Virus record (IMG/VR): IMGVR_UViG_3300037882_003357
Coordinates: 1 to 64,000 of that record
Origin: a virus
Strand: one strand, 5' to 3'
DNA: 64,000 nt
The notes beneath the pieces are model-generated. The model saw only the letters and a program-made list of their open reading frames with translations, searched no databases and was not told where the DNA came from. Of this stretch, positions 751 to 55,604 are shown piece after piece. A program made the position numbers and the translations under genes. How positions within the stretch are numbered: the stretch's first letter is position 1; each line of letters opens with the position of its first letter.

Positions 751-790
751 GTGCGCTCTCCTCGCCAGTTTACTGGCTGTGGGGAGCTTC
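751..790 (-). repeat. Dispersed hairpin element, copy a
   Basis: Read leftward it begins GAAGCTCCCC and ends CGAGGAGAGCGCAC, the outer arms shared with copies at 5751, 30946 and 53211. Its centre differs, carrying its own CCAG-TAAA-CTGG hairpin. It sits between two leftward genes. Confidence 0.6.
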
Positions 791-3857: not shown

Positions 3858-3888
3858 AGTATAACACAACCAGGAGAGAACTTGTCAA
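3858..3888 (-). promoter_or_regulatory. Sigma-70-like leftward promoter
   Basis: Leftward reading gives TTGACA, a 19-base spacer and TATACT, preceded by TGTGT. It drives the gene at 3417-3827 and probably the genes beyond it. It overlaps the 3' end of the PhoH-like gene. Confidence 0.65.
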
Positions 3889-4580
3889 TTAGAGTGGTAT
3901 CTTTGTTGAATTTCTCCTACTAGACCGCCAGAACGCACTACATCTTCCCATCCCATCTCAACAATTCCCACTTCTGGAAGGTCTTTTAACCTAAAAACAG
4001 CGTCAGAAAGGCCGTCATAGAACTTATCTTTGCTATCTTTCTGGTGGTAATCGCCCATGATTACAATTTTAGCCCTATCTCCAATGCGAGTAAGAATCAT
4101 TTCAACCACTTGAGGAGTGGCGTTTTGCATCTCATCTGCAATTAAAAAAGTGTCGTTTAAGCTCCTTCCACGTAAATCTTGAAGCAAAATAGGCTCAATC
4201 TTCTTTTTTCTGAGCAAATATTCCTGCATGGCGTCTCCACAGAACACTTTTAAGTTGTCTTTCACAGGCCAGAGAAGGGGAGCCAGTTTCTCGTCAGCCT
4301 CTCCTGGTAGAAAACCTATTCCTTGAAGGCTGGGGAAATCGACAATAGGCTTAGTGTAGAGAATTTCTCGTATGCTTTGCTTCTTTTGCATCATAACTGC
4401 TTCATAAAGCGTTAAGAGGGTCTTTCCTGAGCCAGCGGGGGCGGTGCAAATTGTTATGGAGTTCTGGGCGATGCTTTCCACTAGACGCTGCTGTCCTGGC
4501 GTTTTAGGGAAGATGCTAATCATTTCTGAGGGTCTTTCTTCTTGAGAGTGTGAGCCGTTGCGGTGCTTACTGTATGCCAT
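3885..4580 (-). CDS. phoH: PhoH-like ATPase
   Basis: A 231-residue PhoH family P-loop ATPase. Walker A is APAGSGKT near residue 48, Walker B is IADEMQNATP near 147, and the conserved MGDYHQKD follows. PhoH-like proteins are very common in phages of cyanobacteria and marine bacteria; their role, RNA handling or phosphate response, is still uncertain. The start is supported by AAGG ten bases upstream. The gene lies upstream of a sigma-70-like promoter for the next genes and shares the leftward direction. Confidence 0.92.
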   Translation of the reverse strand: MAYSKHRNGSHSQEERPSEMISIFPKTPGQQRLVESIAQNSITICTAPAGSGKTLLTLYEAVMMQKKQSIREILYTKPIVDFPSLQGIGFLPGEADEKLAPLLWPVKDNLKVFCGDAMQEYLLRKKKIEPILLQDLRGRSLNDTFLIADEMQNATPQVVEMILTRIGDRAKIVIMGDYHQKDSKDKFYDGLSDAVFRLKDLPEVGIVEMGWEDVVRSGGLVGEIQQRYHSN

Positions 4581-5220: not shown

Positions 5221-5307
5221 GTGTGACAATCTCCTTGCGCTGTATTTCACAAGCATAACACACAAAAATAAATTTGGTATAAGGTTGCAAAAAGTAATCC
5301 AGTATGA

Positions 5308-5317
5308 GATAATGAAG
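5308..5317 (+). promoter_or_regulatory. Late-type promoter motif GATAATGAAG
   Basis: Exact copy of the motif that precedes several virion genes. Here no gene follows for about 1 kb; the structured non-coding region begins directly downstream, so this is the likely start of that RNA. Confidence 0.6.
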
Positions 5318-5750
5318 ATACCAGTAGAGGGTGAACTCCTCACTACATAGTAATGCTCCAGACATCTTTCAGGATGTCGTTGTGAGAATGCGACACACCG
5401 CTAAAAGGCATCAGCCCACATCTCAAAGCGAAGCGACCAGTGCTAACAAAGCCAAACGCAAACGCGAAGAAGCTAGTCTGACGGACTAGCGTGTGAGGGG
5501 AAGCACCCACACTACAGAAATGTAGTCTGACATAAGATTGAGTGAGCCGTGTGGTAAAATCTGGAAAGAGCAAGCAGCATTTAGCTGCGTTGCCTGTTCC
5601 GGTGAAGACTCTGTTAGATGAAAAGCTTCTAGGATTCATCTTCTCCCCTTCTGCAAAGCAGAAGGCCGTACTGAGTCGAAGGGCAAGTAAATTCGCTTTC
5701 TGTCGCTTGAAAGAGCAGGAAGTTTCTAGAAGGCAATAGCCACGGTAAAG

Positions 5751-5782
5751 TACGCTCTCCTCGCTCCGCTGCGAGGAGCTTC
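5751..5782 (-). repeat. Dispersed hairpin element, copy b
   Basis: Read leftward GAAGCTCCTCGCAGCG continuing to CGAGGAGAGCGTA. Here the element forms a perfect 8-pair hairpin and is enclosed by the 8-pair AGCCACGG/CCGTGGCT helix of the putative RNA. Confidence 0.65.
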
Positions 5783-5822
5783 CAAAAGCAGAAACCCCGT
5801 GGCTTTGCCATGTCTATGTAAT

Positions 5823-5843
5823 GACCGGAGTGCTTGGTCTTTT
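5823..5843 (+). terminator. Terminator at the end of the structured RNA
   Basis: GACC, a nine-base loop and GGTC are followed by TTTTT and a further T-rich stretch. The stem is short. A second weak hairpin, TTCTATA/TATAGAA, with a seven-T run lies about 50 bases further on as a backup. Confidence 0.5.
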
Positions 5844-5845
5844 TA

Positions 5846-6280
5846 ACTTTTCATTTTTCGCGCGTTTGGAGCATTCTATAGATTATTTATAGAACAATTA
5901 TTAATTTTTTTCACGAAGTGTCTCAGCTAATAAACAGGCTATAGAGTAGCTATATAAAACAAGCTATAACCAGGTTTTATTGTCTAGATATTTGAGCGTA
6001 AGCGAACACTGCGTAGCATATAGCGACCAGCGGGAGCGGCTCTTAGTGACCGAAGGGAACATCTGCCTTCCAAATTCAAGCGGAACGCAGTGAGCATTGA
6101 ATTTCACGCGAAAGCGTGTAAGAAGGCACTTACCACGAAGAGATAAGCGCTTCGCGTTCTCTGAGTGGGGATAAAAGCGACCGAAGGGAGTATCGTTATA
6201 GATATTAACTAAGTACATAGAGCGCAAATGTAAATTGTAATGGCAGCTTACAATAAGTACAAGCACTCTTAGCCAAACTT
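5846..6280 (+). other. Second folded, gene-free region
   Basis: The first 140 bases are AT-rich with three GCTATA copies. From about 5990 the sequence becomes strongly foldable. GCCTTC/GAAGGC encloses two stems, AAATTCAA/TTGAATTT and CACGC-GAAA-GCGTG, a three-way junction. It is followed by a hairpin closed by CCAC/GTGG with AGAGA/TCTCT inside. GACCGAAGGGA occurs twice. I see no supported gene. Confidence 0.5.
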
Positions 6281-6321
6281 AAGCCTATTCTTTAGCTTGA
6301 CAAAAGCCTGTTCTTTAACTT
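6281..6321 (+). repeat. 18-bp imperfect direct repeats flanking a -35 box
   Basis: AAGCCTATTCTTTAGCTT at 6281-6298 and AAGCCTGTTCTTTAACTT at 6304-6321 are spaced 23 bases apart, about two helical turns. They lie on each side of and into the promoter, as an operator or activator site would. Confidence 0.5.
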
Positions 6322-6326
6322 AGACT
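6297..6326 (+). promoter_or_regulatory. Sigma-70-like rightward promoter
   Basis: TTGACA, 18-base spacer, TAGACT, 28 bases before the ATG of the next gene. Overlaps the direct repeats described separately. Confidence 0.65.
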
Positions 6327-6354
6327 AAAAGAGCATAGTTAAAGAAAAATTCAA

Positions 6355-7496: not shown

Positions 7497-8144
7497 CTAA
7501 GCTTCTAGCAGAGGACACATTTTGTCTGACTTTCTGCCGTTGTCTGATTTGGTTAGAACTTGAAGATTCCACAGACCGTTAACAATGCTAGGTTCTAGCA
7601 CATTTTTCTTAATGAAGAAATTTACTGGTATTATCTGGTCTATTGCAACTTCTATTTCTTTTCTTTGGTGCCATATAGGAAAGGTGTGTAAATGCGCGAC
7701 CAACTCTTCAGTGGAATACTTTACTAAGTATGATGAGCGCATACCTGCCTTTGAATCTTTAGTATCATTTAATAGCTGATGCAGCGTGTTGCGTAGTCTC
7801 GTCCGTACTGACACAAGTTCAGCGAGAGCCTCTCTGTCGGGTTTATACTTGTGACTATTAGCACGTGCATTTGCTTCAGCAGTTCTTAGCAACCTGCAAG
7901 CTTTGCATCCGCTACCTTTGAGGTGTTCGTGAGGCTCTTACCTACAGCCGCAGAACCCCACTTTCGACATCCTCTACCTCTAAGATGCTCATGAGCATCT
8001 TGCTGAAAGTCTCCGTGAATGGGACAAGTTATTGTTACGTGGCTAGCTGCCTTAGTGAAACGTGTTTTTCTGGTATGAGTACTTACCTGGATGTGCTTCT
8101 GAAGCCCTAGCAATAAAGTCTTTTTTTGTGATTTGAGGTGCCAT
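7497..8144 (-). pseudogene. Decayed homing endonuclease (zinc-repeat plus HNH)
   Basis: Three consecutive leftward frames make sense only when joined. From ATG at 8144 a frame reads MAPQITKKDFIARASEAHPG, then stops. A second frame continues with a zinc-type repeat, TITCPIHGDF to HEHLRGRGC. A third frame continues with a second repeat, HEHLKGSGCKAC, and ends in an HNH-like segment with DQIIPVN and GLWNLQVLTKSDN. The His of DHIIP is Gln here. This is the usual domain order of phage group-I-type HNH proteins, so at least two frameshifts have broken it. Confidence 0.7.
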
Positions 8145-8179
8145 AGAAAATGAATGTAGGAATAATACTATAGTGTAGC

Positions 8180-10138
8180 ATGACAACTAAATCAACGTCT
8201 ACCAAGCGTCGCAGTGCATCAAGTATTGCTGGGGCAAGATTAGCTGCATTAGACGGTAAAACAAGAAAAAATGCTTCAACAATCCAAGCTCAGGTTGCAT
8301 CCGGTGAGCTAGTTGAGCAGATGATAATAGAAATGAAGACTTATGGAGTAAATGAGTTTGGAGAAAGACTTGATTTTTCAGAACCTTGCTTTGAAGAGTG
8401 TTTGCGACTTGTGGGTGACTTACGTGTTGCAAGAGTTTACGTGAGCGGCTGCTCTCAAAGATTTAAGTCTGCAAGTGTCATTCAAGTTAACGCCTGGATG
8501 AGCCAGAGAGCAGGTCTTGCAACTCTTTTCAGTTGGCCTAAAGCAAGAATGCTTGAGTTGTTGCAGCCTCGCCAGCATCTACCAGTTTTGAAAAACTGGA
8601 GCAAAGTAAGTGGTATTACTACCATTACAAGAGAAATGAGAACTTCCACTACTACTTATGATGTGGGGGTCGCTCCTGCAACTTTTACTCACGTCAACAG
8701 CCAAAAATCCGATTCTGAAATTGGGGCAGGAACAAGTAGTGTTGCCGTTACAGCATCACTGCTAACTTGCGATGAAAGCTCTCAAAGCCCTCTGTCTGCA
8801 CAGCAAGCGTTATTTAGACGCTTAGACGCAGGAAAAATTAAGACTCACCCTGTGAGGCTTACAGGAACTCCGTCAGGAGGTTCTGGCATCGAAAGTAGTA
8901 TTGCAGACGCTGATTATGAGTTCATTCCTCACGTCATCTGTAACCACTGTGGTAAACTAGCATCACTTCACCCTTTCGGTGCTCTATTTAGACCTGAAAT
9001 GGTGCGCAGCGAAGATGGTACCTTGCTAAAGAGTTTTTGCTATGAAGATGGAATGCCCCGAAAATTATTTTGTCATGACCCTAATAATAGCTTTGAAACT
9101 GCGTTTGTAGGATGTGAGTATTGTGAACAAGAGCTTTCGGATGAATCGCGCTACGAAGCAAGATTCTGGTGCGTCAAGAATAAAATCAGTCTTCAGGACT
9201 TTTTGCAAAATGTTGTTCCCGAACAGTGGGAGAAAAAGCAGCTCCGTGTAGGTCTCTGGGTGGGTGCGCTCTCCAGACAACGAACAAATATAGCTGCTGA
9301 GATAATGGCAGACTGCACACTTGAGAATATCTCTGACTTTTACCAGCAGCGTTGCGGAACACCTTCAACCTTTGCTGCAAACTGCATTACTTCAGAAGCT
9401 CTTATAAACGCCTTAGAACGCAAGTTTTTTACTAAGGATAGTTTCTATCAAACTCACAACTTAACAGACACTCCTGAGGCTGCTAGGCAGGATAGAATAC
9501 GTTCTGTTAAACTCTGCGGTATTGACCAAGGAAGAAGCTCCAACTACTTTGCCGCGATTGAGTTTATTTTCGATAGTCATCTCCCTCCTAACCTTGCTTT
9601 CTCTACTGCCAAATGGAACATCCTAGCTTTAGAGTGTTTTCCTAGTTTTGCTACTGGAGAGCTTCTTGCAAAATACGATATTGATGGAGGGTTTATTGAC
9701 AACGAACCTTCTATAGCTTCCGCAGCTAAAATCTGTTCTGAAACAGGGCTGACACTCGCTGACCAGCAAGCTAAACAAAAAGACGATTTCATCATTAAGC
9801 AGGTGCAAGACGGCGGGGAGTTCTTTGATTGCGTAAAAATCAAACATAAAAAGTTTGCTAAGCACCTTTTTGCATTGTTTTCTGGAGCTAACATAGCTGT
9901 TAATCGAGATTATTTAAGGTTTGCTGGAGGTAAGAGTAAGGAATCTGGTGACATTTTTAAGCATCTTACGAGAGTTAGTTGGGACAGCGATTCAGGAGAT
10001 TTAGTCAGGGCACCAGACAAAAGCGATGACATCTTTTTTAGCGCTGTTTTCTGCTGTGCAGCATTTGCAATGTATTTAGTTGACCCCTCACACATTGCTC
10101 TTAATAAAGCGGATTGGTCGTGGATGGACAGCTTTTAG
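8180..10138 (+). CDS. terL: Terminase large subunit
   Basis: A 652-residue packaging motor. A degenerate Walker A GCSQRFKS (residue about 90), a Walker B-like LLTCDESSQ and a GTPSGGSG motif mark the ATPase. A zinc ribbon formed by CNHC and CEYC (about 252 and 311) splits it from the nuclease, as in GpA-like terminases. The nuclease half starts at GIDQGRSSN (about 448) and ends with SWDSDSGDLVRAPDKSDD, the usual last acidic motif. The Walker lysine lacks the preceding Gly. It is unlinked from the capsid genes and 34 kb from the small-subunit candidate. Confidence 0.85.
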   Translation: MTTKSTSTKRRSASSIAGARLAALDGKTRKNASTIQAQVASGELVEQMIIEMKTYGVNEFGERLDFSEPCFEECLRLVGDLRVARVYVSGCSQRFKSASVIQVNAWMSQRAGLATLFSWPKARMLELLQPRQHLPVLKNWSKVSGITTITREMRTSTTTYDVGVAPATFTHVNSQKSDSEIGAGTSSVAVTASLLTCDESSQSPLSAQQALFRRLDAGKIKTHPVRLTGTPSGGSGIESSIADADYEFIPHVICNHCGKLASLHPFGALFRPEMVRSEDGTLLKSFCYEDGMPRKLFCHDPNNSFETAFVGCEYCEQELSDESRYEARFWCVKNKISLQDFLQNVVPEQWEKKQLRVGLWVGALSRQRTNIAAEIMADCTLENISDFYQQRCGTPSTFAANCITSEALINALERKFFTKDSFYQTHNLTDTPEAARQDRIRSVKLCGIDQGRSSNYFAAIEFIFDSHLPPNLAFSTAKWNILALECFPSFATGELLAKYDIDGGFIDNEPSIASAAKICSETGLTLADQQAKQKDDFIIKQVQDGGEFFDCVKIKHKKFAKHLFALFSGANIAVNRDYLRFAGGKSKESGDIFKHLTRVSWDSDSGDLVRAPDKSDDIFFSAVFCCAAFAMYLVDPSHIALNKADWSWMDSF

Positions 10139-14777: not shown

Positions 14778-17561
14778 ATGACCAAGCTTTTACTTCCAAA
14801 GAAAATCAAGGCTGAGAATCTATTGTACGTAGTTAAGCTGCCAGAAGTGCCTACTTGGATTGCCACTTACAAAGACAACACTGCAATGGTGTATAGCATT
14901 CCTGTGCTACCTAGTGATGATGAGCTAGACCAATGGCTTAACACACTTGTGCTTAGACTTGTGGAAGCAGCTATTTTTAGCAGACATGATGAAGAGCATT
15001 ACCTTGAGCTATGCAAAAAGTTGCATAAGCCAAGCACTGCTTGGATGGAGTTCGTGGCTCACATGACCACTGAGCCTGGAGTTTGGGTGGCAGGGAAGAA
15101 AGGAGACTTCTCTTTCTCTAGCAGCGACACTAGCTTGTGGAAGCTTCCTGAAATTGATGAGGAAACTAGAGAGACTAAGGAATATGACAAAATTACTGGA
15201 GCTGAGCTTGGAGATGCTTTAGGCTTTCCTGCACGTTTGCGCTATAAGCAGAAGCTACAAATCACCACGACAGATGACTTTGCTTTTGTTCAATACCTTC
15301 ACGCATCTCACTACTATTGGATTAAGCCTTTAGACAAGAGCATTGGGGTGCTTCATGCAGTTACGCAAAGCACTTTAGATTCCAGCATCACTGTAGTAGA
15401 CGCTGCTGACCCTAGCGTGTTTGGTCTCATTGACGTGTGGACGCGCAGTTCTGAAGTGCTTGCTATTGACACTGAAACATTTGACGAAGATGAACCTAAT
15501 GGCTGGAAAGCTCTTGTGGGCTGGTTAGGGAAGATTCGTTTGCTTCAGATTTACTCTCCAGTGCTGGATACGACGCTTATTATTGACTTTGGAGGAAGGC
15601 ATCAAAACGTTTCTGACAGTGTGCGTTTTCAGCTTGGTAGCTACATCCAAGAGCGGGTTGAAGGGAAGACTATTAAATTTCAGAACGCTTTGTTTGACCT
15701 GCTGTTCCTTGATTATCAGCTAGGACTGACTTTCTATGGTTGTCAGATTAAGGATTCAATGCTCATGAGTAAATCACTTTGGGCAGGAATTGGAATGCTT
15801 GCTCACAGCTTAGAAGCAATTAGTACAAGGCTTGGGCTAGGCACTCCAGACAAGAGCTTGCAGAAGAGCGACTTCGGTGTGAGCTTAGTTCCTGCTCAGC
15901 TCAACTACGGTGCTGATGACACTAAAATCACTCACAACGCAGTGGAAGAGCTTGAGAAGCGACTTGACCGAGTAGGGGAGAATTGGGAGTTTGCAGCCAT
16001 TCTGAATGACTATGTTCATTGCTGCCACATGATTCGTAAGCATGGAATGCCCATCAGTTTGCAGACTTTGAGAGAAGTGGAAACCGTAACTCAACAGTAC
16101 TACTCAAAGAAGGAAGCTCTGTGGCTAGAAGAAAGTGGCTTGTCTGCCACTGCTAGTTCTCAAGCCATTGTAGGGTGGTTAGATGGGCAAGGAATTAAGG
16201 TGACTAATGCTCAGGCAGGAACTCTTAAAGAACTTGCTCTCACTTTCCCTAAGCTGCAATCTCTTCTTGATGCTAAAGCAGCTTTCAAGCGCTTGGGCTA
16301 CATCCAAGGACTTAGACGCGCAGAGGGTTATCGAGAAGACTCTTGCGTCACTCCTGGCATTCAAGTGCAAGCTCGTCAGTGTATGGGAAGGACGAGTCAA
16401 GGTGACTTGGTTAGAGGCAAGAACGTGGGTACAAACTGTCAAAACCCTGCGAAAGAATCTAAGCTGTATCCTGAACTTCCTGATATTCGACAAGTGTTCT
16501 GCGCTCCTCCCACTCACAAGCTGATTGGTATTGACTTAAGCAGCTCTCACCTTCGATTTGCTGTGCATTATTCAGGAGCCAAACTTGCTCTTGCCACCAT
16601 GCAACCAGGAGAAGACATTCACCTCGCAAACGCTGCCTACATCATTAAATCTTGTGAGCCTATTGATAGCGCATTTTACAAGGTTCTCTGCTCTTACAAG
16701 CAGCTTCTACGCATTAAGGCCATTGGCCTTGACCATAGTGAGGAGCCTTCCGAAGGGATGCTTTTGTGGGCAAGTCAGCAGCTTATAAAGACTAAGTATT
16801 ATACTGTCGAGGCTCTCCTTGAGAGCCTCTTCAAGACTGCTAAGTACTACCGGAACATCTCAAAGACCGCCATCTATTTAGCAATCAATCTTGGAGGCGC
16901 TGCAAGGCTCCAGAACAGCTTGAAGCAAGTGGGAATCATTGTAGACCTTGAAACCTGTAAGGTCATTCTTGCTGCTCTGTGGGAAGCAATACCTGAGATT
17001 AGAGAGTATGTGAAGCGTAAGCAGAAAGAAGTGAACACTACAACTAGCATTCTCAAGCCTGATGAAATCACTCTGCTAAGTCCTGACGAAGTTGATTGGG
17101 AAGAGCTTGACGAAGAACAAACTAAGGAGGCTCGTAAGAAGCCTGTGGAGTTTGCTAAGCTTCTCTGTGCTTCTGGATTCTCTCGCTACGTGCCGAAGTA
17201 TTACCAAACAGGTTTCTACGGCAATCAGTACGTTAGCTGCTCCATCTCAGATGTGAGCGCTACAGAGTGGATGAGTAGCGAGGGAATCATGATGATGCGC
17301 TCTCAGATACGCTTTGTGCAGGAATACATCATTCCTAATGAATACAACATTGCAGACGAGACAGGTTATGCAAAGGTGTGGCTGGCAAACAACTGTCATG
17401 ATGAAATCCTTGTCTGCGCTAAGGATGAACTAGCCGAGGTCTCTTATGATGTGCTAGAATCCATAATGAAAGAAGAGTGGCATCGAATGAATCCTTCAGT
17501 GGAAGGTATTGAGTCTACTAAAGAGAAAAGCATTGGATTAGCATGGAGCCAAATCAAATGA
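14778..17561 (+). CDS. Family A DNA polymerase with 3'-5' exonuclease
   Basis: A 927-residue replicative polymerase. Exonuclease motifs are intact: D231-T-E233, N303-x3-D307 and Y377-x3-D381. Polymerase motif A is DLSSSHLR (586-593), in which the usual steric-gate Glu of DYSQIELR is His591. Motif B runs from R692 with K696 and Y700 in the position of Klenow Phe762, and N704 where Tyr766 is usual. Motif C is HDE (874-876). About 55 extra residues separate motifs A and B compared with Klenow. A small gene overlaps its stop. Confidence 0.93.
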   Translation: MTKLLLPKKIKAENLLYVVKLPEVPTWIATYKDNTAMVYSIPVLPSDDELDQWLNTLVLRLVEAAIFSRHDEEHYLELCKKLHKPSTAWMEFVAHMTTEPGVWVAGKKGDFSFSSSDTSLWKLPEIDEETRETKEYDKITGAELGDALGFPARLRYKQKLQITTTDDFAFVQYLHASHYYWIKPLDKSIGVLHAVTQSTLDSSITVVDAADPSVFGLIDVWTRSSEVLAIDTETFDEDEPNGWKALVGWLGKIRLLQIYSPVLDTTLIIDFGGRHQNVSDSVRFQLGSYIQERVEGKTIKFQNALFDLLFLDYQLGLTFYGCQIKDSMLMSKSLWAGIGMLAHSLEAISTRLGLGTPDKSLQKSDFGVSLVPAQLNYGADDTKITHNAVEELEKRLDRVGENWEFAAILNDYVHCCHMIRKHGMPISLQTLREVETVTQQYYSKKEALWLEESGLSATASSQAIVGWLDGQGIKVTNAQAGTLKELALTFPKLQSLLDAKAAFKRLGYIQGLRRAEGYREDSCVTPGIQVQARQCMGRTSQGDLVRGKNVGTNCQNPAKESKLYPELPDIRQVFCAPPTHKLIGIDLSSSHLRFAVHYSGAKLALATMQPGEDIHLANAAYIIKSCEPIDSAFYKVLCSYKQLLRIKAIGLDHSEEPSEGMLLWASQQLIKTKYYTVEALLESLFKTAKYYRNISKTAIYLAINLGGAARLQNSLKQVGIIVDLETCKVILAALWEAIPEIREYVKRKQKEVNTTTSILKPDEITLLSPDEVDWEELDEEQTKEARKKPVEFAKLLCASGFSRYVPKYYQTGFYGNQYVSCSISDVSATEWMSSEGIMMMRSQIRFVQEYIIPNEYNIADETGYAKVWLANNCHDEILVCAKDELAEVSYDVLESIMKEEWHRMNPSVEGIESTKEKSIGLAWSQIK

Positions 17562-18307: not shown

Positions 18308-19684
18308 ATGAGCATTGACAAAATACTTGATAACCTTGAGCTGAACAAGCCAATCAAGGACGAGGCCACAGGTTACTGGTTTATCACTGGTGTGGCTGCT
18401 CGTATGGGCTGTCAAGAATATCCTGAGTATGGCTTCACAGCGTTCAGGGATGCTGCATTCATTGAAGAGATGACGAAGCTGCTACTCTTCAAGCCTGTGA
18501 CCATGCAGCACTTTGAGCAGAGTCCCACTAAGAATAGAGATAAGAAAGTAGGACTCATTGTAGATACAACTTTCAAAGATGGGCTGGCACTTGTAAGAAT
18601 CTGCGTGGATGACCCTTTTCTTTGTGGGTTATTTGACAGTGGCAAGGCTGCTGAGATGCACCTTGGTCTCAGCGTAGGATATTCAAGTCCCATGAAGAAT
18701 AAGATGGGAAGCTGGAAAGATGTCGCAGGAATTGCTGGACAGAAGAACAGACAGTACCCTTACCAGAAGCAGCAAGTTACTCCCATTACAGTTAATCATC
18801 TTGCTTTCTGTGAATTAGGTAGAGGCGGGGAAGTTGTGAAAGCAATTACAGACGAAGCTCCTGCTTCTGAAGACTTTGTATTTAATGATACTTTCCCTCT
18901 AGAAATTGAGGTCATGGATAAAAAAACGAAAGACGAAGAACTGGAACTGACAGTTACTGCAACAGCAGAAGCTGAACCTAGTGAAAATGAAGGAGAAGAA
19001 CAGGAAGAAGACGCTTCAGCCCTTTTTCCCTATCCCGAACAACATTCATCCGCAAGAAGGAAACAAAACGACATGGCAGAAGATTCGTCTGCAATGCTAG
19101 ACAAGATGGGCGCGGTTTGTGACAAGATGAACAAAATGTGTGATGGCTTGGCAGCAATGGCTGACAAGTATGGCGCTACTTGTGATTCTATGACCAAAGT
19201 TGCAGACAATCTCTCTGCGTCCATAGACTTCATCTCCGCAATTAAATCTGCATTTGAAGACCCCGCTCGACCTTATAATCTACTCACCAAGAATCCCTCT
19301 CCTGATGCAATTGCTGACAGTGCAAAGAATGCAGAAGTTTTTTCTGCTCAAGTCGCTGATGCCGTTGCATTGTGGCTAGAGTTCTCTGACTCTCTTAAAG
19401 AGAAGGTCACGGACTTTGGACAAACTGCTTCTCAACTAAAGCGAGTGCTACTTGCTGACAGCGAAGTGTTTGAAATCTCTGATTCCACTTCTGACGCTGA
19501 AATTAACGCTGCTTTCTCGGTATTCCGCAACGTTCAGAATCAAGTTAAAGCTACTAAGACTGCCAAATCTTCTCAAGTCGAACAAGTCTTCAAGAAGTTC
19601 AAAGATGCTTCTGTAGAGACGGTGGATGTGGAAGATGGTGCAGGGTTCACACGACAAGCCAACGGTGGCTTGGTCTTCAAATAG
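18308..19684 (+). CDS. DUF2213-type head maturation protease with scaffold-like tail
   Basis: A 458-residue protein. The N-terminal 180 residues follow the DUF2213 pattern: a PVTMQHFEQ segment, LGLSVGYSS near 120 and NHLAFCELGRGG near 160. This family is encoded just upstream of DUF2184 capsid proteins and is thought to process the prohead. After an acidic linker (about 200-250) comes a long helical region, 255-430, rich in repeated Asp-Lys-Met and Cys-Asp-x-Met units, likely a scaffold. First head gene behind a late-type motif. Confidence 0.78.
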   Translation: MSIDKILDNLELNKPIKDEATGYWFITGVAARMGCQEYPEYGFTAFRDAAFIEEMTKLLLFKPVTMQHFEQSPTKNRDKKVGLIVDTTFKDGLALVRICVDDPFLCGLFDSGKAAEMHLGLSVGYSSPMKNKMGSWKDVAGIAGQKNRQYPYQKQQVTPITVNHLAFCELGRGGEVVKAITDEAPASEDFVFNDTFPLEIEVMDKKTKDEELELTVTATAEAEPSENEGEEQEEDASALFPYPEQHSSARRKQNDMAEDSSAMLDKMGAVCDKMNKMCDGLAAMADKYGATCDSMTKVADNLSASIDFISAIKSAFEDPARPYNLLTKNPSPDAIADSAKNAEVFSAQVADAVALWLEFSDSLKEKVTDFGQTASQLKRVLLADSEVFEISDSTSDAEINAAFSVFRNVQNQVKATKTAKSSQVEQVFKKFKDASVETVDVEDGAGFTRQANGGLVFK

Positions 19685-20312: not shown

Positions 20313-21236
20313 ATGGCAATTTCAATTTTAATGCAGCGCCAGATTGAGCAAATCTCGACTCGCGCCGTCGTTCAGAAACGGGCAGAACGCCTGTTCTCTG
20401 AAGATAAGGGCATCATCCCTCAGTCTCCCGACATTGTAGCAGGAAAGCGCTACTACACCTACCCCATCGTCAACATGCAAGGCCGCGCTGCCTTGATTGC
20501 TAACTCGTCTTTCGACGTTCCTGGTGTGGACGCATTCGTTGAAGAACGCACACAGAAAATTGAACTTCTGTATCAGCCTTGGAGTCTTCCTTTCCCTGAT
20601 GAGATTGAAGCCTCTGCTGCTGGCGTAAACATCAACGGTATTCAAATTGAGCTTGCTGCTCAGTCCATCTACAACGCTGTGGATGACCTTGGTTACAATG
20701 GCTCTCCTAACATTGGTCTCTTTGGTATTGCTAACCAGCCTAATGCGCTAAGCTATACGCTTCCTGCTGATGGCACAGGTGCAAGCACTCGTTGGATTAA
20801 CAAGACTGCCGAACAAATCCTACGTGATATTCAAGGCATGGCTTATTACTCTAGCAAGGTCACTGTTCACGCCTATCGCACCACTCACATTCTCATTCCT
20901 CCTTCTGCTTTTGAGCCGCTAACTCAAAAATGGTTATCTGATTCTGGTGTGGCAGAAACGCCTTATGTGCGTTATCTGATTAATCAAGGTCTCACCATTG
21001 ATGGTGGAAGCAAAATCATTCATGTGGCTCCTGGTCTAGAAACTGCTGGTGCTGGTGGAACACCTATTGCCATCTGTTATAATCCTCGTCCTGACTACAT
21101 TGAAATGCTTGATACAGCTACTCAGCAGAGACCCATGTTTGAATCGGTTGAAGGCGTTCGCTCAGCGATGTTTCGTTATTCTGGAGCAGTGTTAGCACGC
21201 CAGCCGTTGTCCATCGTTGTAATCCCAGGCATCTAA
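20313..21236 (+). CDS. Major capsid protein (DUF2184 type)
   Basis: A 307-residue protein matching the DUF2184 encapsulin-like capsid family: DLGYNGSPNIGLFGIANQP near residue 125 is the family hallmark, and the C-terminal half carries ICYNPRPDYIEM and the strand-rich end. It closes the first head operon before a 13-pair terminator. Codon use near the start is GC-richer than its neighbours, as expected for high expression. Confidence 0.82.
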   Translation: MAISILMQRQIEQISTRAVVQKRAERLFSEDKGIIPQSPDIVAGKRYYTYPIVNMQGRAALIANSSFDVPGVDAFVEERTQKIELLYQPWSLPFPDEIEASAAGVNINGIQIELAAQSIYNAVDDLGYNGSPNIGLFGIANQPNALSYTLPADGTGASTRWINKTAEQILRDIQGMAYYSSKVTVHAYRTTHILIPPSAFEPLTQKWLSDSGVAETPYVRYLINQGLTIDGGSKIIHVAPGLETAGAGGTPIAICYNPRPDYIEMLDTATQQRPMFESVEGVRSAMFRYSGAVLARQPLSIVVIPGI

Positions 21237-24103: not shown

Positions 24104-24456
24104 TACAAACCATATTAGCACAAATCATTAAAGATGCAAGCGAACAGCTTGTGGAAGAATTTGCTGAGGCTACAAGAGAGGTGCAGGAGACTCCTAGAGA
24201 CTGGGAAGCTTTTCAAGGACGAGTCACAGTTCGTAAGAATCCCTTGGCTCCCATGACTATTGTAGAAGAATATCGAGATAACATCGACACTAGGCTAGCG
24301 TTAGACAACACAGATGCTGACATTCCAAACATGCAAGTGAAGGTGAATGTACCTTACGCAGCAGATTTGTATGAAGACAAGCCTCTGTTTGAAGAAATGC
24401 TGAATGAGCATTCGGTTAAAGATTTGTGGGAAGCTGCCTTAAAAAAGACGCTATAA
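24097..24456 (+). CDS. Putative head-tail connector component (119 aa)
   Basis: Helical N-terminus (ASEQLVEEFAEATREV) and soluble acidic body, no firm family. Rightward gene between adaptor and portal, overlapping the acyltransferase gene's 3' end by six bases. Confidence 0.55.
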   Translation: MSLQTILAQIIKDASEQLVEEFAEATREVQETPRDWEAFQGRVTVRKNPLAPMTIVEEYRDNIDTRLALDNTDADIPNMQVKVNVPYAADLYEDKPLFEEMLNEHSVKDLWEAALKKTL

Positions 24457-25047
24457 GCCAATTGTCTTTTTTACTTGTTTGCTCAGTGCTTCTATCTCAG
24501 GGATTTTACGTTGAGTTGGAGTGTCTAGAGAATACAAGGCTCGTTTGCCGTGTAAGTCAAAGAAGTCTGTTTCCTGCACAAAATCAAATCCTCCTCGCTT
24601 AACATGCCTTGCGAGTCTTGGCTGCATGACACAATAGATATAGAAAATGTGACTAGCATCCGCAAGTTCTTTAGCCGCAAGGTAGAGGCATAAAGGAATG
24701 AGAGGGTTATTACGATAGTCTTTTAAGACGCAGAGACGCGATACTTCTAAGCTGGGAACCACTAACTCTTTTTCTTTGCATTCTGTAATGCTCTCTAAAG
24801 GTAGTTTCTGAGAAGGTGTGAGCTTAGGCACTGCACGGAAAGTAGCAACGGGAATATCTTTGATAGTTTCTCTGATTAGAAAGTGCCAAGACTTAGCATC
24901 ATACTTATCTTGCTCTTTCTTTTCGGGCGTGACTTCCTCATAGCCTAGTTCTTCGCAATACACCTGATGACGCACTCGCAAAGCTTCTGAAAAGTCATTA
25001 TCTAGCAGTTCCAAGTTGTAAGTGAGAAAGAAATCAATAGTAGACAT
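24451..25047 (-). CDS. Acyl-homoserine-lactone-synthase-like N-acyltransferase
   Basis: A 198-residue GNAT-fold protein with the LuxI/FeeM pattern: LRVRHQVYCEELGY (R24, R26, Y30), D47-x2-D50, R71 in ATFRAVP, and E101/R104 in LEVSRLCVL. These match the catalytic and acyl-carrier-binding residues of LuxI (R24, F28, D45, D48, R70, E100, R103) in identity and spacing. Relatives include autoinducer synthases, N-acyl amino acid synthases and exosortase-associated acyltransferases; which product is made cannot be read. A single leftward cargo gene between head genes, with its own AAGG site. Confidence 0.72.
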   Translation of the reverse strand: MSTIDFFLTYNLELLDNDFSEALRVRHQVYCEELGYEEVTPEKKEQDKYDAKSWHFLIRETIKDIPVATFRAVPKLTPSQKLPLESITECKEKELVVPSLEVSRLCVLKDYRNNPLIPLCLYLAAKELADASHIFYIYCVMQPRLARHVKRGGFDFVQETDFFDLHGKRALYSLDTPTQRKIPEIEALSKQVKKTIGL

Positions 25048-25092: not shown

Positions 25093-26616
25093 ATGACTGA
25101 TTCAGCTCCGCAACTAGAAATTCAATCTCCCTCAGATGACGAGATGCGCGTTCTTACTTTCACAGACGGTGCCATCATGTCTCAGGCAATGAGCATGGAG
25201 ACCATGTTTGCTAATGAGCTGGACTATCAATCTGGAGCTAGTGGCAACACCTTTGCTTTTGAAGTGTGGAGCAATGCAGCCTACGGACAATTTGGCATCA
25301 CAAGAGAAATCGCGGACGTGATTTACAGCAGCTCCATGATTGCTCGTCGTGCCATTGAAACCATCCCTGATAAAGCCTGGAGCCTTCTAGAAAGCTGGGA
25401 ACCACCAGAAAAGAAGAATAAACCTGCTTCTAATTCCCTCATGCGCATCTGGAGAAAGAAGCTGCTCTCTCCTTTCATTGAAGCTGCTTGCATGGCAAGG
25501 AAGTATCAAGACGCTTATGTGATTCTATTTTGGGATGATACGAGTGACCTTAGTAAGCCCTTCAATCCAGAGGCCGCTAGTGAGCTTGTGGGGGCTGTTG
25601 CGAGAAGCAGATGGAGTGTGTTGCCTACTAATGGCATTCCAGGCTCCTGTGACTCGTACAGGATGACCTCAGCTTACAATGACCCTGTGCTTCCTAATGG
25701 AGTGAAAGGACGAGACGGAGTTCCTCTTGGAGAAGTGCATTCTAGCCGAGTGATTCACGTTCCTGGCATTCTCATAGACAATGAGCAGAAGCGCTACAGA
25801 CAGGGCTACAACATGAGCCTTCTGAGCTACTTACAAGAGCCTCTTGAGAAGTGGATAACCACTCAGCAAGCAGGGATTGGAATGCTTCAAAGTCATAGCA
25901 TGTTTAAGCTAGGACTTAAAGGGCTTGCTTGGAAAACACAAAACAAAGACGTGCAGAGCCTTGGCAGACGCTTTAAGAGCATTTTTCAGGGTATTAAGCT
26001 CATGGGAGGACTCATCCATGACCAAGACCAGGAGACGGCTGATTTCAGCTCTCGTTCTTATGGTGGTGTGGACAATCTCATCAAGCAGCTTGAATCTTAT
26101 TTGGTGAACGCAAGCGACACTCCTAAAGACTTTCTGCTTATGAGTGGTGATGGTGCCTTTAGTGAAACTGGAACAGGAAGTAGATATGCACTTGCTTCGA
26201 TTGTTGAGAAGTACCACCGTACTCATGTTAGTCCTGTGGTGGAAACCTTGTTTGGTCTTTTAGCTTCTGTGTACTTTCCAGATTTGGATGAGAAGTATTT
26301 AGAAGAATGTGAGCCGGTCTACAAATCAGCTTTGATGATGACTCGCGCTGAAGAAGCGGACATTCAATTTAAGCATGCCCAGAGCGCAACACTCTACTTG
26401 AACTCCGCAGTTCCAGTGCTAAACGCTGAATCTGTTCTAACGCATTGGGAAAACGGGCATTACAACGATGAAATCACCCTCACAGGAAAACTCCCTCCAG
26501 AACCACCCGCACTAGGTGCAGCGGCACAAGAAGGAGCAGGGAAGGAGATGGCAAAGGCTGCTGCTAATTCTTCTAGAGGAGCTTACACTGCTCAGAAGAC
26601 TAGCAAGAAAGGTTAG
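25093..26616 (+). CDS. Portal protein (DUF1073 type)
   Basis: A 507-residue protein with the DUF1073 portal order: IYSSSMIARRAIETIPDKAW near 85, a long helical middle, and SDTPKDFLLMSGDGAFSETG near 340. The portal forms the dodecameric ring at the packaging vertex. The C-terminus is an Ala/Lys-rich tail. It follows a late-type motif and is encoded well after the capsid gene and 17 kb from the terminase, an unusual order. Confidence 0.8.
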   Translation: MTDSAPQLEIQSPSDDEMRVLTFTDGAIMSQAMSMETMFANELDYQSGASGNTFAFEVWSNAAYGQFGITREIADVIYSSSMIARRAIETIPDKAWSLLESWEPPEKKNKPASNSLMRIWRKKLLSPFIEAACMARKYQDAYVILFWDDTSDLSKPFNPEAASELVGAVARSRWSVLPTNGIPGSCDSYRMTSAYNDPVLPNGVKGRDGVPLGEVHSSRVIHVPGILIDNEQKRYRQGYNMSLLSYLQEPLEKWITTQQAGIGMLQSHSMFKLGLKGLAWKTQNKDVQSLGRRFKSIFQGIKLMGGLIHDQDQETADFSSRSYGGVDNLIKQLESYLVNASDTPKDFLLMSGDGAFSETGTGSRYALASIVEKYHRTHVSPVVETLFGLLASVYFPDLDEKYLEECEPVYKSALMMTRAEEADIQFKHAQSATLYLNSAVPVLNAESVLTHWENGHYNDEITLTGKLPPEPPALGAAAQEGAGKEMAKAAANSSRGAYTAQKTSKKG

Positions 26617-28278: not shown

Positions 28279-28752
28279 TCATTGTAACACACGCTCTTGA
28301 GAAGACGCAAGCTTCAGTTCTTGCTCTAGCCACGCCGCAACTTTGCGAAGTTCTGCTGGTGATGCGTTGCTTTTGATTTGGTTCGCTCGATTACTAATGA
28401 CTCGACAGTTCTCAGGGACGTAGCCAAGCTCAGGAATTAATCGGTCTACAGAAGGGCTATTATCTCTAGACTCGCAACCTCTCATTAGCGTAATGCCCAG
28501 CACTGGACATTTTTCAGGAGTGTTTTCAAGAATCCAACCATAGGTAAGAGTTACAGGAAATTCACCATTACTTTTTTGATGGTATTTCCTAATACGGTGT
28601 TTAGCAGCTTGTTCAGAAGACCTTCTATGTTCTAAATGGCATTGACAGCAATTTCTGTTAGAGCGGTATCTTAAAGACTTTCCCGTGTTTTCATGCTCAT
28701 GTCTACGCTTGCAAAGTTTTCCTAAAACTAAGTTATCACCAAGCTCCGGCAT
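28279..28752 (-). CDS. HNH-type endonuclease-like protein
   Basis: A 157-residue protein with an N-terminal basic zinc-type segment (CKRRHEH, NCCQCHLEH) and a C-terminal SVDRLIPELGYVPENCRVIS with NRANQIKSNA, the pattern of phage HNH and endonuclease VII-like proteins. Start at MPELGD, overlapping the 3' end of the upstream gene by 17 bases. Confidence 0.7.
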   Translation of the reverse strand: MPELGDNLVLGKLCKRRHEHENTGKSLRYRSNRNCCQCHLEHRRSSEQAAKHRIRKYHQKSNGEFPVTLTYGWILENTPEKCPVLGITLMRGCESRDNSPSVDRLIPELGYVPENCRVISNRANQIKSNASPAELRKVAAWLEQELKLASSQERVLQ

Positions 28753-29239
28753 CCTCGTCCTCCACAAAGGCATCGAACTCGCTGGCATAAGGCACTTCTT
28801 GAGCAAGGAGGACGTGCTTGCGTCTGTTGAGGGTGCTAATCAAATAGGTGAGAGGTTGTGCTTCACTTCCCCACTGATAGTTATACATGATGCGAAGACT
28901 TTCTAAGAATAGAATATTAGCCAGCTCATCAACTTCGTAAAAACCGCTACTCAACATTTTGTCATTCTTGTTAAGCACTTTCTTCACCATAGAATAGAGT
29001 GCTGCTTTATTCTTCCACACCCAACCAACCACTGTGGTGGATGCTTTTTCTAGCTGTCTTTCTAGCTCTGGACTCACTTGTTGAATTTCTTTCAGCTTTG
29101 CAATTCGATGTTTTGTAGTGCTTGGAGCAGGTACTTTTAATTCTGCGTGATGAAGTAAACTTTGAAGAAGCTTTAATGCAATTTCTTCATGCTCTGTGAA
29201 CGTTGGGCATTGACTATTGTTTTCTCTTCGTTTTGGCAC
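28736..29239 (-). CDS. Possible sigma-like or transcription protein (167 aa)
   Basis: Not firmly recognised. Residues 95-145 (around FYEVDELANILFLESLR followed by PLTYLISTLNRRKHVL) resemble sigma-70 region 2, the acidic helix, the aromatic core and the Tyr-Leu before a basic helix, as also seen in the small T4 late sigma gp55. The rest is helical. Adjacent to an HTH-like gene. A candidate for recognising the GATAATGAAG motif; this is inference. Confidence 0.4.
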   Translation of the reverse strand: MPKRRENNSQCPTFTEHEEIALKLLQSLLHHAELKVPAPSTTKHRIAKLKEIQQVSPELERQLEKASTTVVGWVWKNKAALYSMVKKVLNKNDKMLSSGFYEVDELANILFLESLRIMYNYQWGSEAQPLTYLISTLNRRKHVLLAQEVPYASEFDAFVEDEDAGAW

Positions 29240-30928: not shown

Positions 30929-31438
30929 TTACGTTGAAAGCATTGTACACTCTCCTCGCTTCGCTGCGGGGGAGCTTTCAAACAAATGAGCTAAGCTCCA
31001 CACCGAATGAAATCTTCGTCCTTCTGCCCATTCTCCACTGAGAGGATGGGCTTTTACTGCGCGATAGGCTGCACTACTGTGAATCATCCACTTTTCTCCT
31101 ACGTCCGTAGGATTGGGGTACACTAATCCGCTGTGGTGGCTAGTTCCACTGTAGTCAAAGAACAAAATATCCCCTGGAAGGGCTAAATCCAAAGTTATCC
31201 GCTGAGCGTTATATTTGCGGATGTAGTCCGTCATGCGCGTGTCTGTGAAACACACTGGAGTGCCTTGAATAGGCACATTCATGTCGTACCCTAAAGCCTG
31301 AGAGTAGCACCACGCAACATACTGCACACAGTCAAAAGCACAACCAGGGAGCTTTGCGTCCTTAGCATATTTAACGTTTAGCTGACTTGCTGCTGCGTCT
31401 ATGATTGTTTGTCGCCACTGAGGAAGTTCAATAGTCAT
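30929..31438 (-). CDS. NlpC/P60 peptidase-like protein
   Basis: A 169-residue cysteine peptidase. The catalytic Cys is in CAFDCVQYVAWC, His in SHHSGLVYP, and the third residue is likely in WMIHSSA. It probably cuts peptidoglycan stem peptides, as a tail-tip hydrolase or lysin. Its last 16 codons lie in a copy of the dispersed hairpin element, so that repeat forms the protein's C-terminus. The gene is leftward, next to the rightward tail-tip gene, beyond an inserted HNH gene. Confidence 0.82.
   Translation of the reverse strand: MTIELPQWRQTIIDAAASQLNVKYAKDAKLPGCAFDCVQYVAWCYSQALGYDMNVPIQGTPVCFTDTRMTDYIRKYNAQRITLDLALPGDILFFDYSGTSHHSGLVYPNPTDVGEKWMIHSSAAYRAVKAHPLSGEWAEGRRFHSVWSLAHLFESSPAAKRGECTMLST
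30946..30978 (-). repeat. Dispersed hairp element, copy c
   Basis: Read leftward AAAGCTCCCCCGCAGCG to GAGGAGAGTGTA; the arms pair. It encodes the last residues of the NlpC/P60-like protein. Confidence 0.6.
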
Positions 31439-53196: not shown

Positions 53197-53459
53197 TGAA
53201 ATGTTCTGAAGAAGCTCCCCGCAGCACAGCGAGGAAAGCGTATGGAATACAGACGCAGGAGATGCGTATCTACATCTTCCCTTGCAAAGCAGACCGAGAG
53301 GCTTGGTTGCAAGAAGATTCTGACAACCGCTCACATTTAGGAAGCAACACCTTCGTTTCTGACATGAGACTTCATGCGATTCATCATGGAACTGCGGCAG
53401 CTAATGAAGCGTTTGTTAGTCCAAAGAGTCCATTACAATTTCAAGGAGGACTTGGATGA
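53196..53459 (+). CDS. Hypothetical protein with repeat-derived N-terminus (87 aa)
   Basis: Codons 5-16 lie in a copy of the dispersed hairpin element, so the N-terminus (EEAPRSTARK) is repeat-derived. The rest is soluble and unknown. TAATG coupling upstream, ATGA overlap downstream. Confidence 0.6.
   Translation: MKCSEEAPRSTARKAYGIQTQEMRIYIFPCKADREAWLQEDSDNRSHLGSNTFVSDMRLHAIHHGTAAANEAFVSPKSPLQFQGGLG
53211..53242 (+). repeat. Dispersed hairpin element, copy d
   Basis: GAAGCTCCCCGCAGCACAGC then GAGGAAAGCGTA, rightward here. Lies inside the 5' end of the gene at 53196. Confidence 0.6.
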
Positions 53460-53605
53460 GATATTTTTTACGTGCCAAAAGCTTTAGTAGTAAGCCTTTG
53501 AAGGTAGAAGCTTCTTCAAAAGAACACGCTGAAATACTTATGGGATTACTAGACGGTGTTGGCTACTACGATTTCTCCATTGAGGAGCAGAAAGAAAATG
53601 AATAA
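53456..53605 (+). CDS. Small hypothetical protein (49 aa)
   Basis: Starts at an ATGA overlap and ends eight bases inside thyX. Basic N-terminal third, then SKEHAEILMGLLDG and an acidic tail. Not recognised. Confidence 0.6.
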   Translation: MRYFLRAKSFSSKPLKVEASSKEHAEILMGLLDGVGYYDFSIEEQKENE

Positions 53606-54344
53606 GCCACTATCAGCAAAAGAACTTCTTGAGCTAGACCCGTATTTTCGAGTGCAGAAACTAGCTGCAATGGACAGTCCTCAGAAGGTGTGCTGGCTTG
53701 CCATGCACCAGGACTACAGCGAGAACTTTGTTCTAGATGAACTGCATCACCTAAATAAGCCAGAAGCTACTTACGGTGAAAGCTTAGTACGAAACTGTTT
53801 AGAAAAAGGACATTATGGAATACTGGAACATCCACAACTTGTCATTGCCACCGCTGGATTCCCTCACAGTGTTATGCAGCAGCTTCGTACACACAGACAC
53901 CTGAGCTTCGATTGCCAAAGCAGTAGGTACAGTGGTAAAAGATTTGCAGATGACTCTAGAGAAATTGAGGAACTTATCTACCTACGTCCAGTGAATCAGG
54001 TCTACAGCGACCGACAAGGCTCTCCTTATACTTATACTCCTGAAATGCGACAAAGGCACCTTGCTAAGGCAATGAGAAGCCGCTGGGAGTATGTAGAGGA
54101 CTTGAAGGAAGGTCTTGCTGAAGAACATGCAAGAGGGAACAACTTCTTCGATATTCGGCAGAATTTTGTTGTAAGCGGCAACCTTCGTTCCTGGCTGCAT
54201 ATTCTTCAATTAAGAAATAAGCGGGACGTTCAACTTGAATGCCAAGCTTTCTGTGAAGGACTTCTACCAATTCTTAAAGATTGGACACCAGAAGTACTTG
54301 ACTATTGGGAAACAAAAGGAACGAGGCTAAAGCTAACACCGTGA
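53598..54344 (+). CDS. thyX: Flavin-dependent thymidylate synthase
   Basis: A 248-residue ThyX. The family motif appears as THRHLSFDCQSSRYSG (98-113), the common variant of RHRxxSxNxxSxR. It makes dTMP from dUMP with FAD and methylenetetrahydrofolate. Start at MNKPLSAKE with GGAG upstream. It closes the nucleotide block with the reductase genes. A GTGA overlap couples it to the next gene. Confidence 0.92.
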   Translation: MNKPLSAKELLELDPYFRVQKLAAMDSPQKVCWLAMHQDYSENFVLDELHHLNKPEATYGESLVRNCLEKGHYGILEHPQLVIATAGFPHSVMQQLRTHRHLSFDCQSSRYSGKRFADDSREIEELIYLRPVNQVYSDRQGSPYTYTPEMRQRHLAKAMRSRWEYVEDLKEGLAEEHARGNNFFDIRQNFVVSGNLRSWLHILQLRNKRDVQLECQAFCEGLLPILKDWTPEVLDYWETKGTRLKLTP

Positions 54345-54580: not shown

Positions 54581-54913
54581 ATGGCAAACGTGCAAGAAGA
54601 TATCTGGACTCCTGGTGAAGAAGTAGCTGAATTACCTATTTCTTACGAAACTTCAGCAGGTTATGCAGAGGCAGAAGACTACCCACTTTCTCAAGAAGTG
54701 CTAGACTTCTTTGAAGGTACCTACGACAACTTGGACAATCTGATGTCTATTGACGGACACCTTCTAGCTTTCCTTGGAGTGACGTATCACGACCCGTTGG
54801 TGTGGCTCATTGGAGCAGCAACAATTCTGCTTCGTTCCACTCTTGGGCGTGAGACAATCTCTCTAGGGATTGCTAAGTTTCAATCCCTAACTAAAGGAGG
54901 TAAAGTAGCGTAA
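54581..54913 (+). CDS. Hypothetical protein with one hydrophobic segment (110 aa)
   Basis: Acidic N-terminal half and a hydrophobic stretch LVWLIGAATILLRS near 83, a probable single membrane helix or buried core. Stop overlaps the next ATG. Confidence 0.55.
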   Translation: MANVQEDIWTPGEEVAELPISYETSAGYAEAEDYPLSQEVLDFFEGTYDNLDNLMSIDGHLLAFLGVTYHDPLVWLIGAATILLRSTLGRETISLGIAKFQSLTKGGKVA

Positions 54914-55140
54914 TGGAAATCTTTAGCTTGTGGACAGTAGAACTCAGAAATAACAAAGCATCTCTCAAACGCTTTGTTAAATTTGTAGAAACACATGCTC
55001 TACAAGCTGCACCTTACGGACAGGACGATTCAACCCAAGCTTACAACGTACTTCTAACTAATTCGCTTGCTGAGCGAATGGAAGAAGAAGTCAACCCGTT
55101 TGAGATGAATCCTTTTGAAGAAATAGGAGGTGCTACCTAA
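54913..55140 (+). CDS. Small hypothetical protein (75 aa)
   Basis: Soluble, with a terminal Asn-Pro-Phe-Glu repeat (VNPFEMNPFEE), which suggests a binding tail. Ends before a strong terminator. Confidence 0.6.
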   Translation: MEIFSLWTVELRNNKASLKRFVKFVETHALQAAPYGQDDSTQAYNVLLTNSLAERMEEEVNPFEMNPFEEIGGAT

Positions 55141-55178
55141 CTTTTACGCGACACATTATCTCCTTCTTTTTGACCCTG

Positions 55179-55207
55179 GACTCCTTATTTATTAAGGAGT
55201 CTTTTTT
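55179..55207 (+). terminator. Rightward terminator
   Basis: GACTCCTTA, TTTAT loop, TAAGGAGTC, then TTTTTT. It closes the thyX operon; its left arm lies just beyond the leftward gene's stop. Confidence 0.85.
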
Positions 55208-55604
55208 GTTCTTGTTGAGCAATATCTAGCCTATCACTCAATCCATCTAGTTGATATTTGTAAATTTCCATGTGCTTCTGAGCGTCGTAACTTGTTTTTA
55301 GTGCAGTGTCTATTTTAACTGAGTTGTTTGTCACACTTGCAGCCACTGCTGAGAACCCAATAGGAATCAGCACCGTGAGAACAACTAAAAGAACTCCCAT
55401 AAACTTGTTATAAGTCTCTGCAACGCTCTGCATTTTTCCTAGATGCAAGTTTAGGTTTTGCACTTGCTGACGTGTTTCGTCCAGAACTCCCTCAAGTTTC
55501 CCAATATTGTTGTGAACACCTGAGAGTTTCGTGACCTCTAATTCAATTGCGTCAATCTTCTCTTCCATCTTGCTCAGTGCGTCTGGATTGCCGTACATAC
55601 TCAT
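55185..55604 (-). CDS. XhlA-like coiled-coil membrane protein
   Basis: A 139-residue protein: an N-terminal coiled coil (about 10-60), one hydrophobic helix (GVLLVVLTVLIPIGFSAV) and a second coiled coil. This is the shape of XhlA-type lysis proteins and of small coiled-coil anchors. Its ATG is part of a GATAATGAG copy; a downstream ATG (residue 13) is a possible alternative. A late-type motif precedes it. Confidence 0.6.
   Translation of the reverse strand: MSMYGNPDALSKMEEKIDAIELEVTKLSGVHNNIGKLEGVLDETRQQVQNLNLHLGKMQSVAETYNKFMGVLLVVLTVLIPIGFSAVAASVTNNSVKIDTALKTSYDAQKHMEIYKYQLDGLSDRLDIAQQEQKRLLNK

What the first reader, a model, noticed from the sequence alone, without database searches (positions are those of the whole stretch)
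5308..5845. Large structured non-coding RNA under a late-type promoter
About 525 bases carry no credible gene but at least eight strong stems, several perfect (7-pair GCTAGTC, 8-pair CCTTCTGC/GCAGAAGG, 8-pair CTCCTCGC/GCGAGGAG) and GAAA tetraloops in the rightward sense. It begins directly after an exact GATAATGAAG and ends at a GACC/GGTC terminator. The size recalls ROOL and GOLLD phage RNAs, but the sequence was not matched to any family by me. This is the best candidate for an undescribed element.
Basis: partly seen in the sequence, partly recalled or inferred. Interest (0 to 1): 0.85.

Follow-up and report, generated by a model that had tools for sequence, protein, structure and literature searches.

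The report
Unclassified large phage non-coding RNA candidate
An unclassified phage carries a roughly 500-base stretch that codes for no protein, sits behind a promoter-like motif it shares with the phage's capsid genes, and is predicted to fold into an elaborate RNA resembling in kind (not in sequence) the giant phage RNAs ROOL and GOLLD; no relative was found, so its reality as an RNA and its function remain untested.

Summary
Window 5319-5845 (+) has no credible gene (codon scores negative, no Pfam/PHROG hit). It has three perfect 7-8-pair hairpins where shuffles give 0.17 (0 of 500 reach 3), and lies in the densest part of the window for such hairpins. It folds better than shuffles (z about -4 to -5) and is predicted to be closed end-to-end by a 7-pair helix (0 of 60 shuffles). 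Coding stretches of the same phage show that fold energy alone is not diagnostic (one scores z -6.5). The best support is anatomical. The stretch begins at an exact GATAATGAAG. All six exact copies of that motif are intergenic, in 12% of the genome, and the other five precede genes in the right orientation, including the prohead-protease/capsid block and the portal. It ends at a modest intrinsic terminator, 510 bases before the next gene. It matches no Rfam family, ROOL and GOLLD included. No relative was found in phages, plasmids, viral contigs or bacterial genomes (restricted scans), so covariation could not be tested. Most likely it is a late-transcribed, free-standing structured RNA that works in the manner of ROOL/GOLLD but is a member of neither. 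Transcription, fold and function are inferred, not shown.

The parts
5285..5313 (+). sigma-70-like promoter: TTGCAA, 17-base spacer, GATAAT with TG before it
   Evidence: 9 of 12 matches; 6 found in the region vs 2.4 expected
5308..5317 (+). GATAATGAAG, the phage's recurrent promoter-like motif
   Evidence: six exact copies, all intergenic; others at 7211, 18259, 25061, 55759 (+) and 55667 (-)
5319..5845 (+). candidate large structured non-coding RNA (start inferred from the promoter)
5344..5350 (+). 5' arm of end-closing helix, pairs with 5814-5820 (UACAUAG/CUAUGUA)
   Evidence: p=0.90 in 5319-5822 (0.54 if the terminator is included); (0/60 shuffles as strong)
5814..5820 (+). 3' arm of end-closing helix
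5354..5358 (+). second long-range helix UGCUC, pairs with 5681-5685 GGGCA
   Evidence: p about 0.6
5361..5378 (+). hairpin GACAUCU/GGAUGUC
   Evidence: p 0.94
5434..5443 (+). long-range core helix, pairs with 5668-5678; encloses the multi-hairpin core
   Evidence: p 0.93-0.97 in the trimmed RNA, about 0.55 with the terminator included
5444..5471 (+). A-rich junction UAACAAAGCCAAACGCAAACGCGAAGAA
   Evidence: mostly unpaired
5472..5490 (+). perfect 7-pair hairpin GCTAGTC/GACTAGC
   Evidence: (p 0.96)
5513..5524 (+). GAAA tetraloop hairpin UACA/UGUA
   Evidence: p 0.75-0.79
5561..5602 (+). long bulged hairpin CUGGAA..GCAAGCAGC/GCUGC.UUGC..UUCCGG
   Evidence: p 0.76-1.0; z -3.65
5647..5665 (+). 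perfect 8-pair hairpin CCTTCTGC/GCAGAAGG
   Evidence: (p 0.99)
5695..5723 (+). hairpin GCUUUCUG/CAGGAAGU
   Evidence: p 0.94
5732..5809 (+). 3' domain: helix GGCAA-AGCCACGG/CCGUGGCU-UUGCC around a large internal loop and an inner hairpin
   Evidence: p 0.96-0.99; z -5.25
5757..5778 (+). perfect 8-pair hairpin CTCCTCGC/GCGAGGAG; member of a hairpin family dispersed in this phage
5823..5844 (+). intrinsic-terminator-like hairpin GACCGGAGTGCTTGGTC + TTTTT

Best explanation
The stretch is a free-standing phage gene for a large structured non-coding RNA of about 500-525 nt. The phage transcribes it from the same kind of promoter as its capsid and portal genes, so probably late in infection, and transcription stops at the intrinsic terminator. 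The transcript folds into a closed architecture: the 5' and 3' ends pair, nested long-range helices enclose a multi-hairpin core with A-rich junctions, and a stable 3' domain follows. It most likely acts in trans as a folded RNA scaffold, alone or with protein, in the manner of ROOL and GOLLD, without belonging to either family. Shown: sequence features, lack of coding signal, motif distribution, predicted fold. Inferred: transcription, timing, actual fold, trans-acting role.
For: Non-coding. Perfect hairpins far above chance. Folding better than shuffles, stronger on + than -, and an end closure as firm in 0/60 shuffles. Predicted unpaired bases are 46% A on the + strand, above its shuffles by 1.7 sd, whereas the - strand shows no such excess (0.3 sd). 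The GATAATGAAG motif is shared with the head-protease/capsid (18259) and portal (25061) blocks and all six exact copies are intergenic. Terminator at the 3' end; no gene starts until 6355, so the promoter would otherwise serve nothing nearby.
Against: No homologue, hence no covariation. Fold energy is matched or beaten by coding stretches of the same phage. Terminator and -35 box are weak. No transcript data. No tRNA genes on the contig, which often accompany ROOL.
Confidence: 0.5

Rival explanations
1. Not a functional RNA: an intergenic patchwork of hairpin-forming repeats (of the kind scattered through this phage) or a decayed gene, transcribed incidentally or not at all.
For: One of the hairpins has kin at 760, 30954, 53234 and 57098; strong folding occurs elsewhere in the genome; the next 500 bases (5846-6354) are also non-coding with hairpins, without significant total folding (z -1.1).
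Against: Exact placement between promoter motif and terminator; end-to-end closure and high-probability long-range helices; hairpins other than the 3' one are not dispersed; phages seldom keep 500 idle bases (general knowledge).
Confidence: 0.25
2. A control or replication region: the 1 kb divergent gap is an origin, and the RNA (if made) is a replication primer or copy-control RNA in the manner of plasmid ColE1 RNA II, reading into the A+T-rich stretch just downstream.
For: Lies in a gap between a leftward and a rightward gene block; 5846-5965 is 70% A+T and overlaps one of the most A+T-rich 100-base windows of the contig; short repeats and hairpins continue to about 6200.
Against: The cumulative GC-skew minimum is at 13908, not here; no convincing iterons; a terminator-like hairpin lies between the RNA and the A+T-rich stretch; the promoter motif is shared with structural genes, whereas a replication primer would be expected early.
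Confidence: 0.15
3. A long untranslated leader or regulatory region of the gene at 6355 rather than a separate RNA.
For: Same strand, next gene downstream.
Against: A terminator and 510 bases separate them, and a better promoter-like site (TTGACA-18-TAGACT, 6297-6326) lies directly before 6355.
Confidence: 0.06
4. A packaging RNA like the phi29 pRNA, acting with a possible terminase encoded about 2.3 kb downstream.
For: Same strand and upstream of a gene at 8180-10138 that looks, by eye, like a large terminase; shared promoter motif.
Against: The gene at 8180 has no Pfam or PHROG match, so the terminase reading is itself unproven; pRNA is known (from memory) only with phi29-type packaging and is about 174 nt; no Rfam match.
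Confidence: 0.04

Closest known systems
ROOL RNA (rumen-originating, ornate, large)
   Same: Phage-borne, about 500-660 nt, ornate predicted secondary structure, no coding capacity (PMC12286853; the 520-nt L. salivarius lncRNA, PMC5643018).
   Different: No Rfam match even at E 10; no tRNA genes on the contig; no homologue known; multimerisation untested.
GOLLD RNA
   Same: Large ornate phage RNA that can assemble without protein (PMC12286853).
   Different: No Rfam match; the candidate is shorter than GOLLD as I recall it; no linker tRNAs.
phi29 pRNA
   Same: Phage RNA, here within 2.5 kb of a possible terminase gene.
   Different: Three times longer than pRNA (length from memory), no Rfam match.
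ColE1 RNA II type replication primers
   Same: Length of about 550 nt (from memory) and an A+T-rich stretch downstream.
   Different: Ends at a terminator-like hairpin before that stretch; no evidence of an origin.

Membership tests
ROOL | Match to the Rfam covariance model | tested here: not met
   no match at the gathering threshold, none at E 10 with permissive filters
ROOL | Encoded in phages or prophages, often near tRNA islands | tested here: inconclusive
   phage contig, but no tRNA in the window or the remaining contig
ROOL | Octameric RNA-only cage | not testable with these tools
   needs mass photometry or cryo-EM
GOLLD | Match to the Rfam covariance model | tested here: not met
Group I or group II intron, tmRNA, tRNA | Match to the Rfam model, or ARAGORN hit | tested here: not met
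   no gene is interrupted
Large structured phage ncRNA (general kind) | No coding potential, own promoter and terminator | tested here: met
   sequence-level only, terminator modest
Large structured phage ncRNA (general kind) | Conserved structure supported by covariation | not testable with these tools
   no homologue found
Large structured phage ncRNA (general kind) | Expressed as a discrete transcript | not testable with these tools
   no RNA data available

The most novel reading that the evidence does not exclude
This is the first representative of an undescribed class of large ornate phage RNA, made late in infection together with the capsid genes and folding into an end-closed scaffold that may form RNA-only or RNA-protein assemblies, independent in sequence from ROOL, GOLLD and OLE.
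Probability: 0.3. Interest if true: 0.8.

Novelty: new variant of a known kind. Interest (0 to 1): 0.5.

Why it matters
Only a handful of large ornate phage RNAs are known, and what they do is unknown. An unrelated example that shares its promoter motif with the capsid and portal genes would tie such RNAs to virion assembly or lysis timing, and would give an independent case for asking whether RNA-only cages are a recurring phage strategy.

Tried and rejected
Rfam on the window, on the region at E 10, and on six PhoH-related loci: nothing relevant. BLAST of the RNA in phages (E 10) and plasmids (E 1): only 21-25-base chance matches or none. Related phages by terminase-like protein, capsid protein and PhoH in viral contigs and by the first two in bacterial genomes: none closer than about 41% PhoH identity, no shared gene order, no RNA. 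Three 16-mers from predicted junctions and one dispersed-hairpin pattern in viral contigs: the hits have unrelated flanks and no extended match. The apparent 21/21 and 22/23 extensions around ACAAAGCCAAACGCAA were inspected and rejected as chance, because the flanks do not resemble the window. RNA against 43 whole viral records: best E 0.07 over 15 bases. Homologues of the next gene (6355) in Vibrio, Acinetobacter and Bacillus phages: different neighbourhoods and no comparable gap directly upstream of the gene. Fold z-score as a stand-alone argument: rejected after coding stretches of the same phage scored as well or better. A large apparent gap at 57-70 kb turned out to be one giant open frame running off the contig, not missing genes. 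A phage sigma factor suspected at 28736-29239 was not confirmed.

Full report
What the window is. The 64 kb window is the first part of a 70,254-base viral contig. It has phage hallmark genes: major capsid protein (20313-21236), portal (25093-26616), head maturation protease (18308-19684), PhoH (3885-4580), ThyX (53556-54344) and a family-A DNA polymerase-like protein (14778-17561). Its capsid protein is about 25% identical to the nearest phages in the collection, and capsid and terminase-like proteins found no relative in viral or bacterial collections. The phage is therefore close to an orphan, which limits every comparative test below.

Checking the observation. Perfect hairpins of seven or more pairs number three in 527 bases, against 0.17 in dinucleotide shuffles, with no shuffle of 500 reaching three; only 1.1% of windows of that size in the 64 kb reach three, and the maximum lies here. 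The stretch contains no credible gene: every ORF inside it scores negative on a hexamer model trained on the phage's own long ORFs, and none has a useful Pfam or PHROG match. Folded whole, the + strand reaches z -3.9 and the - strand -3.4. Cut at the terminator's foot, 5319-5822 gives z -5.2.

A caution on energy. Other stretches of this phage fold as strongly, or more so: 54701-55227, mostly two short genes, gives z -6.5, and the candidate region ranks third among 120 sampled 527-base windows. Energy alone would not justify the claim. More specific features are these. The ends are predicted to pair (5344-5350 with 5814-5820, p 0.90); 0 of 60 shuffles show an equally firm end closure and neither of two coding controls does, although the end point was chosen knowing that helix. 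The core helix 5434-5443/5668-5678 has p 0.93-0.97. Both long-range values fall to about 0.55 if the terminator is left on, because the terminator strand then competes. Unpaired positions are 46% A on the + strand, 1.7 sd above shuffles, with no such excess on the - strand.

The transcription unit. The stretch starts at an exact GATAATGAAG. Six exact copies occur in the contig; all are intergenic although only 12% of the contig is, and the five others stand 32-282 bases ahead of a gene in the right orientation, including the head-protease/capsid block and the portal. Copies with up to one mismatch number 18 in the window against 4.7 expected. The copy at 5308 also has a weak -35 box (TTGCAA, spacing 17); the others show no clear one by eye. 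This fits a phage promoter motif used by structural genes; its lateness is inferred from those genes. A terminator-like hairpin with five T follows at 5823-5844; it is modest (-5.8 kcal/mol). The next gene begins at 6355 and has its own better promoter-like site at 6297-6326.

Relatives and covariation. None found. Rfam gives nothing at curated thresholds and nothing relevant at E 10. BLAST against phages and plasmids gives only chance matches or none. Eight scans of 2.9 million viral contigs (three single proteins, one PhoH alignment, three RNA 16-mers, one hairpin pattern) and two protein-guided scans of bacterial genomes brought no homologue of the RNA and no syntenic phage. Absence of relatives is therefore absence of a test, not a negative test. 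Covariation remains untested.

A dispersed hairpin inside the RNA. The 3' hairpin CTCCTCGC-TCCGCT-GCGAGGAG belongs to a family scattered in this phage: near 760, 30954 and 57098 (+) and 53234 (-). By eye, the 57098 copy replaces the outer GCTC/GAGC arms of the others with GCAG/CTGC, a change on both sides that keeps pairing. The element may be a protein-binding or processing hairpin that also occurs in the large RNA, or a repeat that entered it. It is a clue, not an explanation.

Most likely mechanism. I read the stretch as a late, free-standing gene for a folded trans-acting RNA, working as a scaffold in the way proposed for ROOL and GOLLD, which form RNA-only cages (PMC12286853); a 520-nt lncRNA of that kind in L. 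salivarius exceeds 16S rRNA in abundance (PMC5643018). I put about 0.7 on its being a real structured transcript and 0.5 on the statement as given. It is not a member of ROOL or GOLLD by the tests available. The main rivals are a functionless hairpin-rich gap (0.25) and a replication-control RNA (0.15); the gap between divergent gene blocks and the A+T-rich stretch downstream keep the latter alive.

Verdict. The finding is a sound candidate, better supported by its promoter and terminator setting and hairpin density than by folding energy, and not yet supported by conservation. Interest 0.5; it would rise sharply with one covarying relative or one transcript map.

Noticed in passing
window 756-787, 5755-5779, 30950-30975, 57098-57125 (+), 53217-53234 (-): A dispersed hairpin family, roughly GCTCTCCTCGC..GCTG(C/T)GGGGAGC; the copy at 57098 has both outer arms changed in a pairing-preserving way. 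One copy sits inside the candidate RNA.
   Followed up: partly
window 5308, 7211, 18259, 25061, 55759 (+), 55667 (-): GATAATGAAG, probable phage promoter motif: six exact copies, all intergenic, four of them 32-63 bases ahead of a gene start.
   Followed up: partly
window 57187 to the contig end (70254): One open frame of more than 4,350 codons running off the contig, with glycine-rich and tape-measure-like sequence; probably a giant tape-measure protein.
   Followed up: partly
window 24451-25047 (-): Acyltransferase of the autoinducer-synthase/FeeM type (Acetyltransf_5, E 2e-13), unusual for a phage; located directly beside the portal gene.
   Followed up: no
window 5846-6354: Second non-coding stretch just downstream, with repeated AGCGACCGAAGGGAG-like hairpins and a 70% A+T segment (5846-5965); total folding of 5955-6260 not significant (z -1.1).
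   Followed up: partly
window 54701-55227: Two short genes and a terminator whose RNA folds far better than shuffles (z -6.5), the strongest of the 527-base windows sampled.
   Followed up: no
window 7886-8186 (-): Two overlapping ORFs that together read like one homing-endonuclease-type protein (motif recalled from memory), apparently broken by a frameshift.
   Followed up: no
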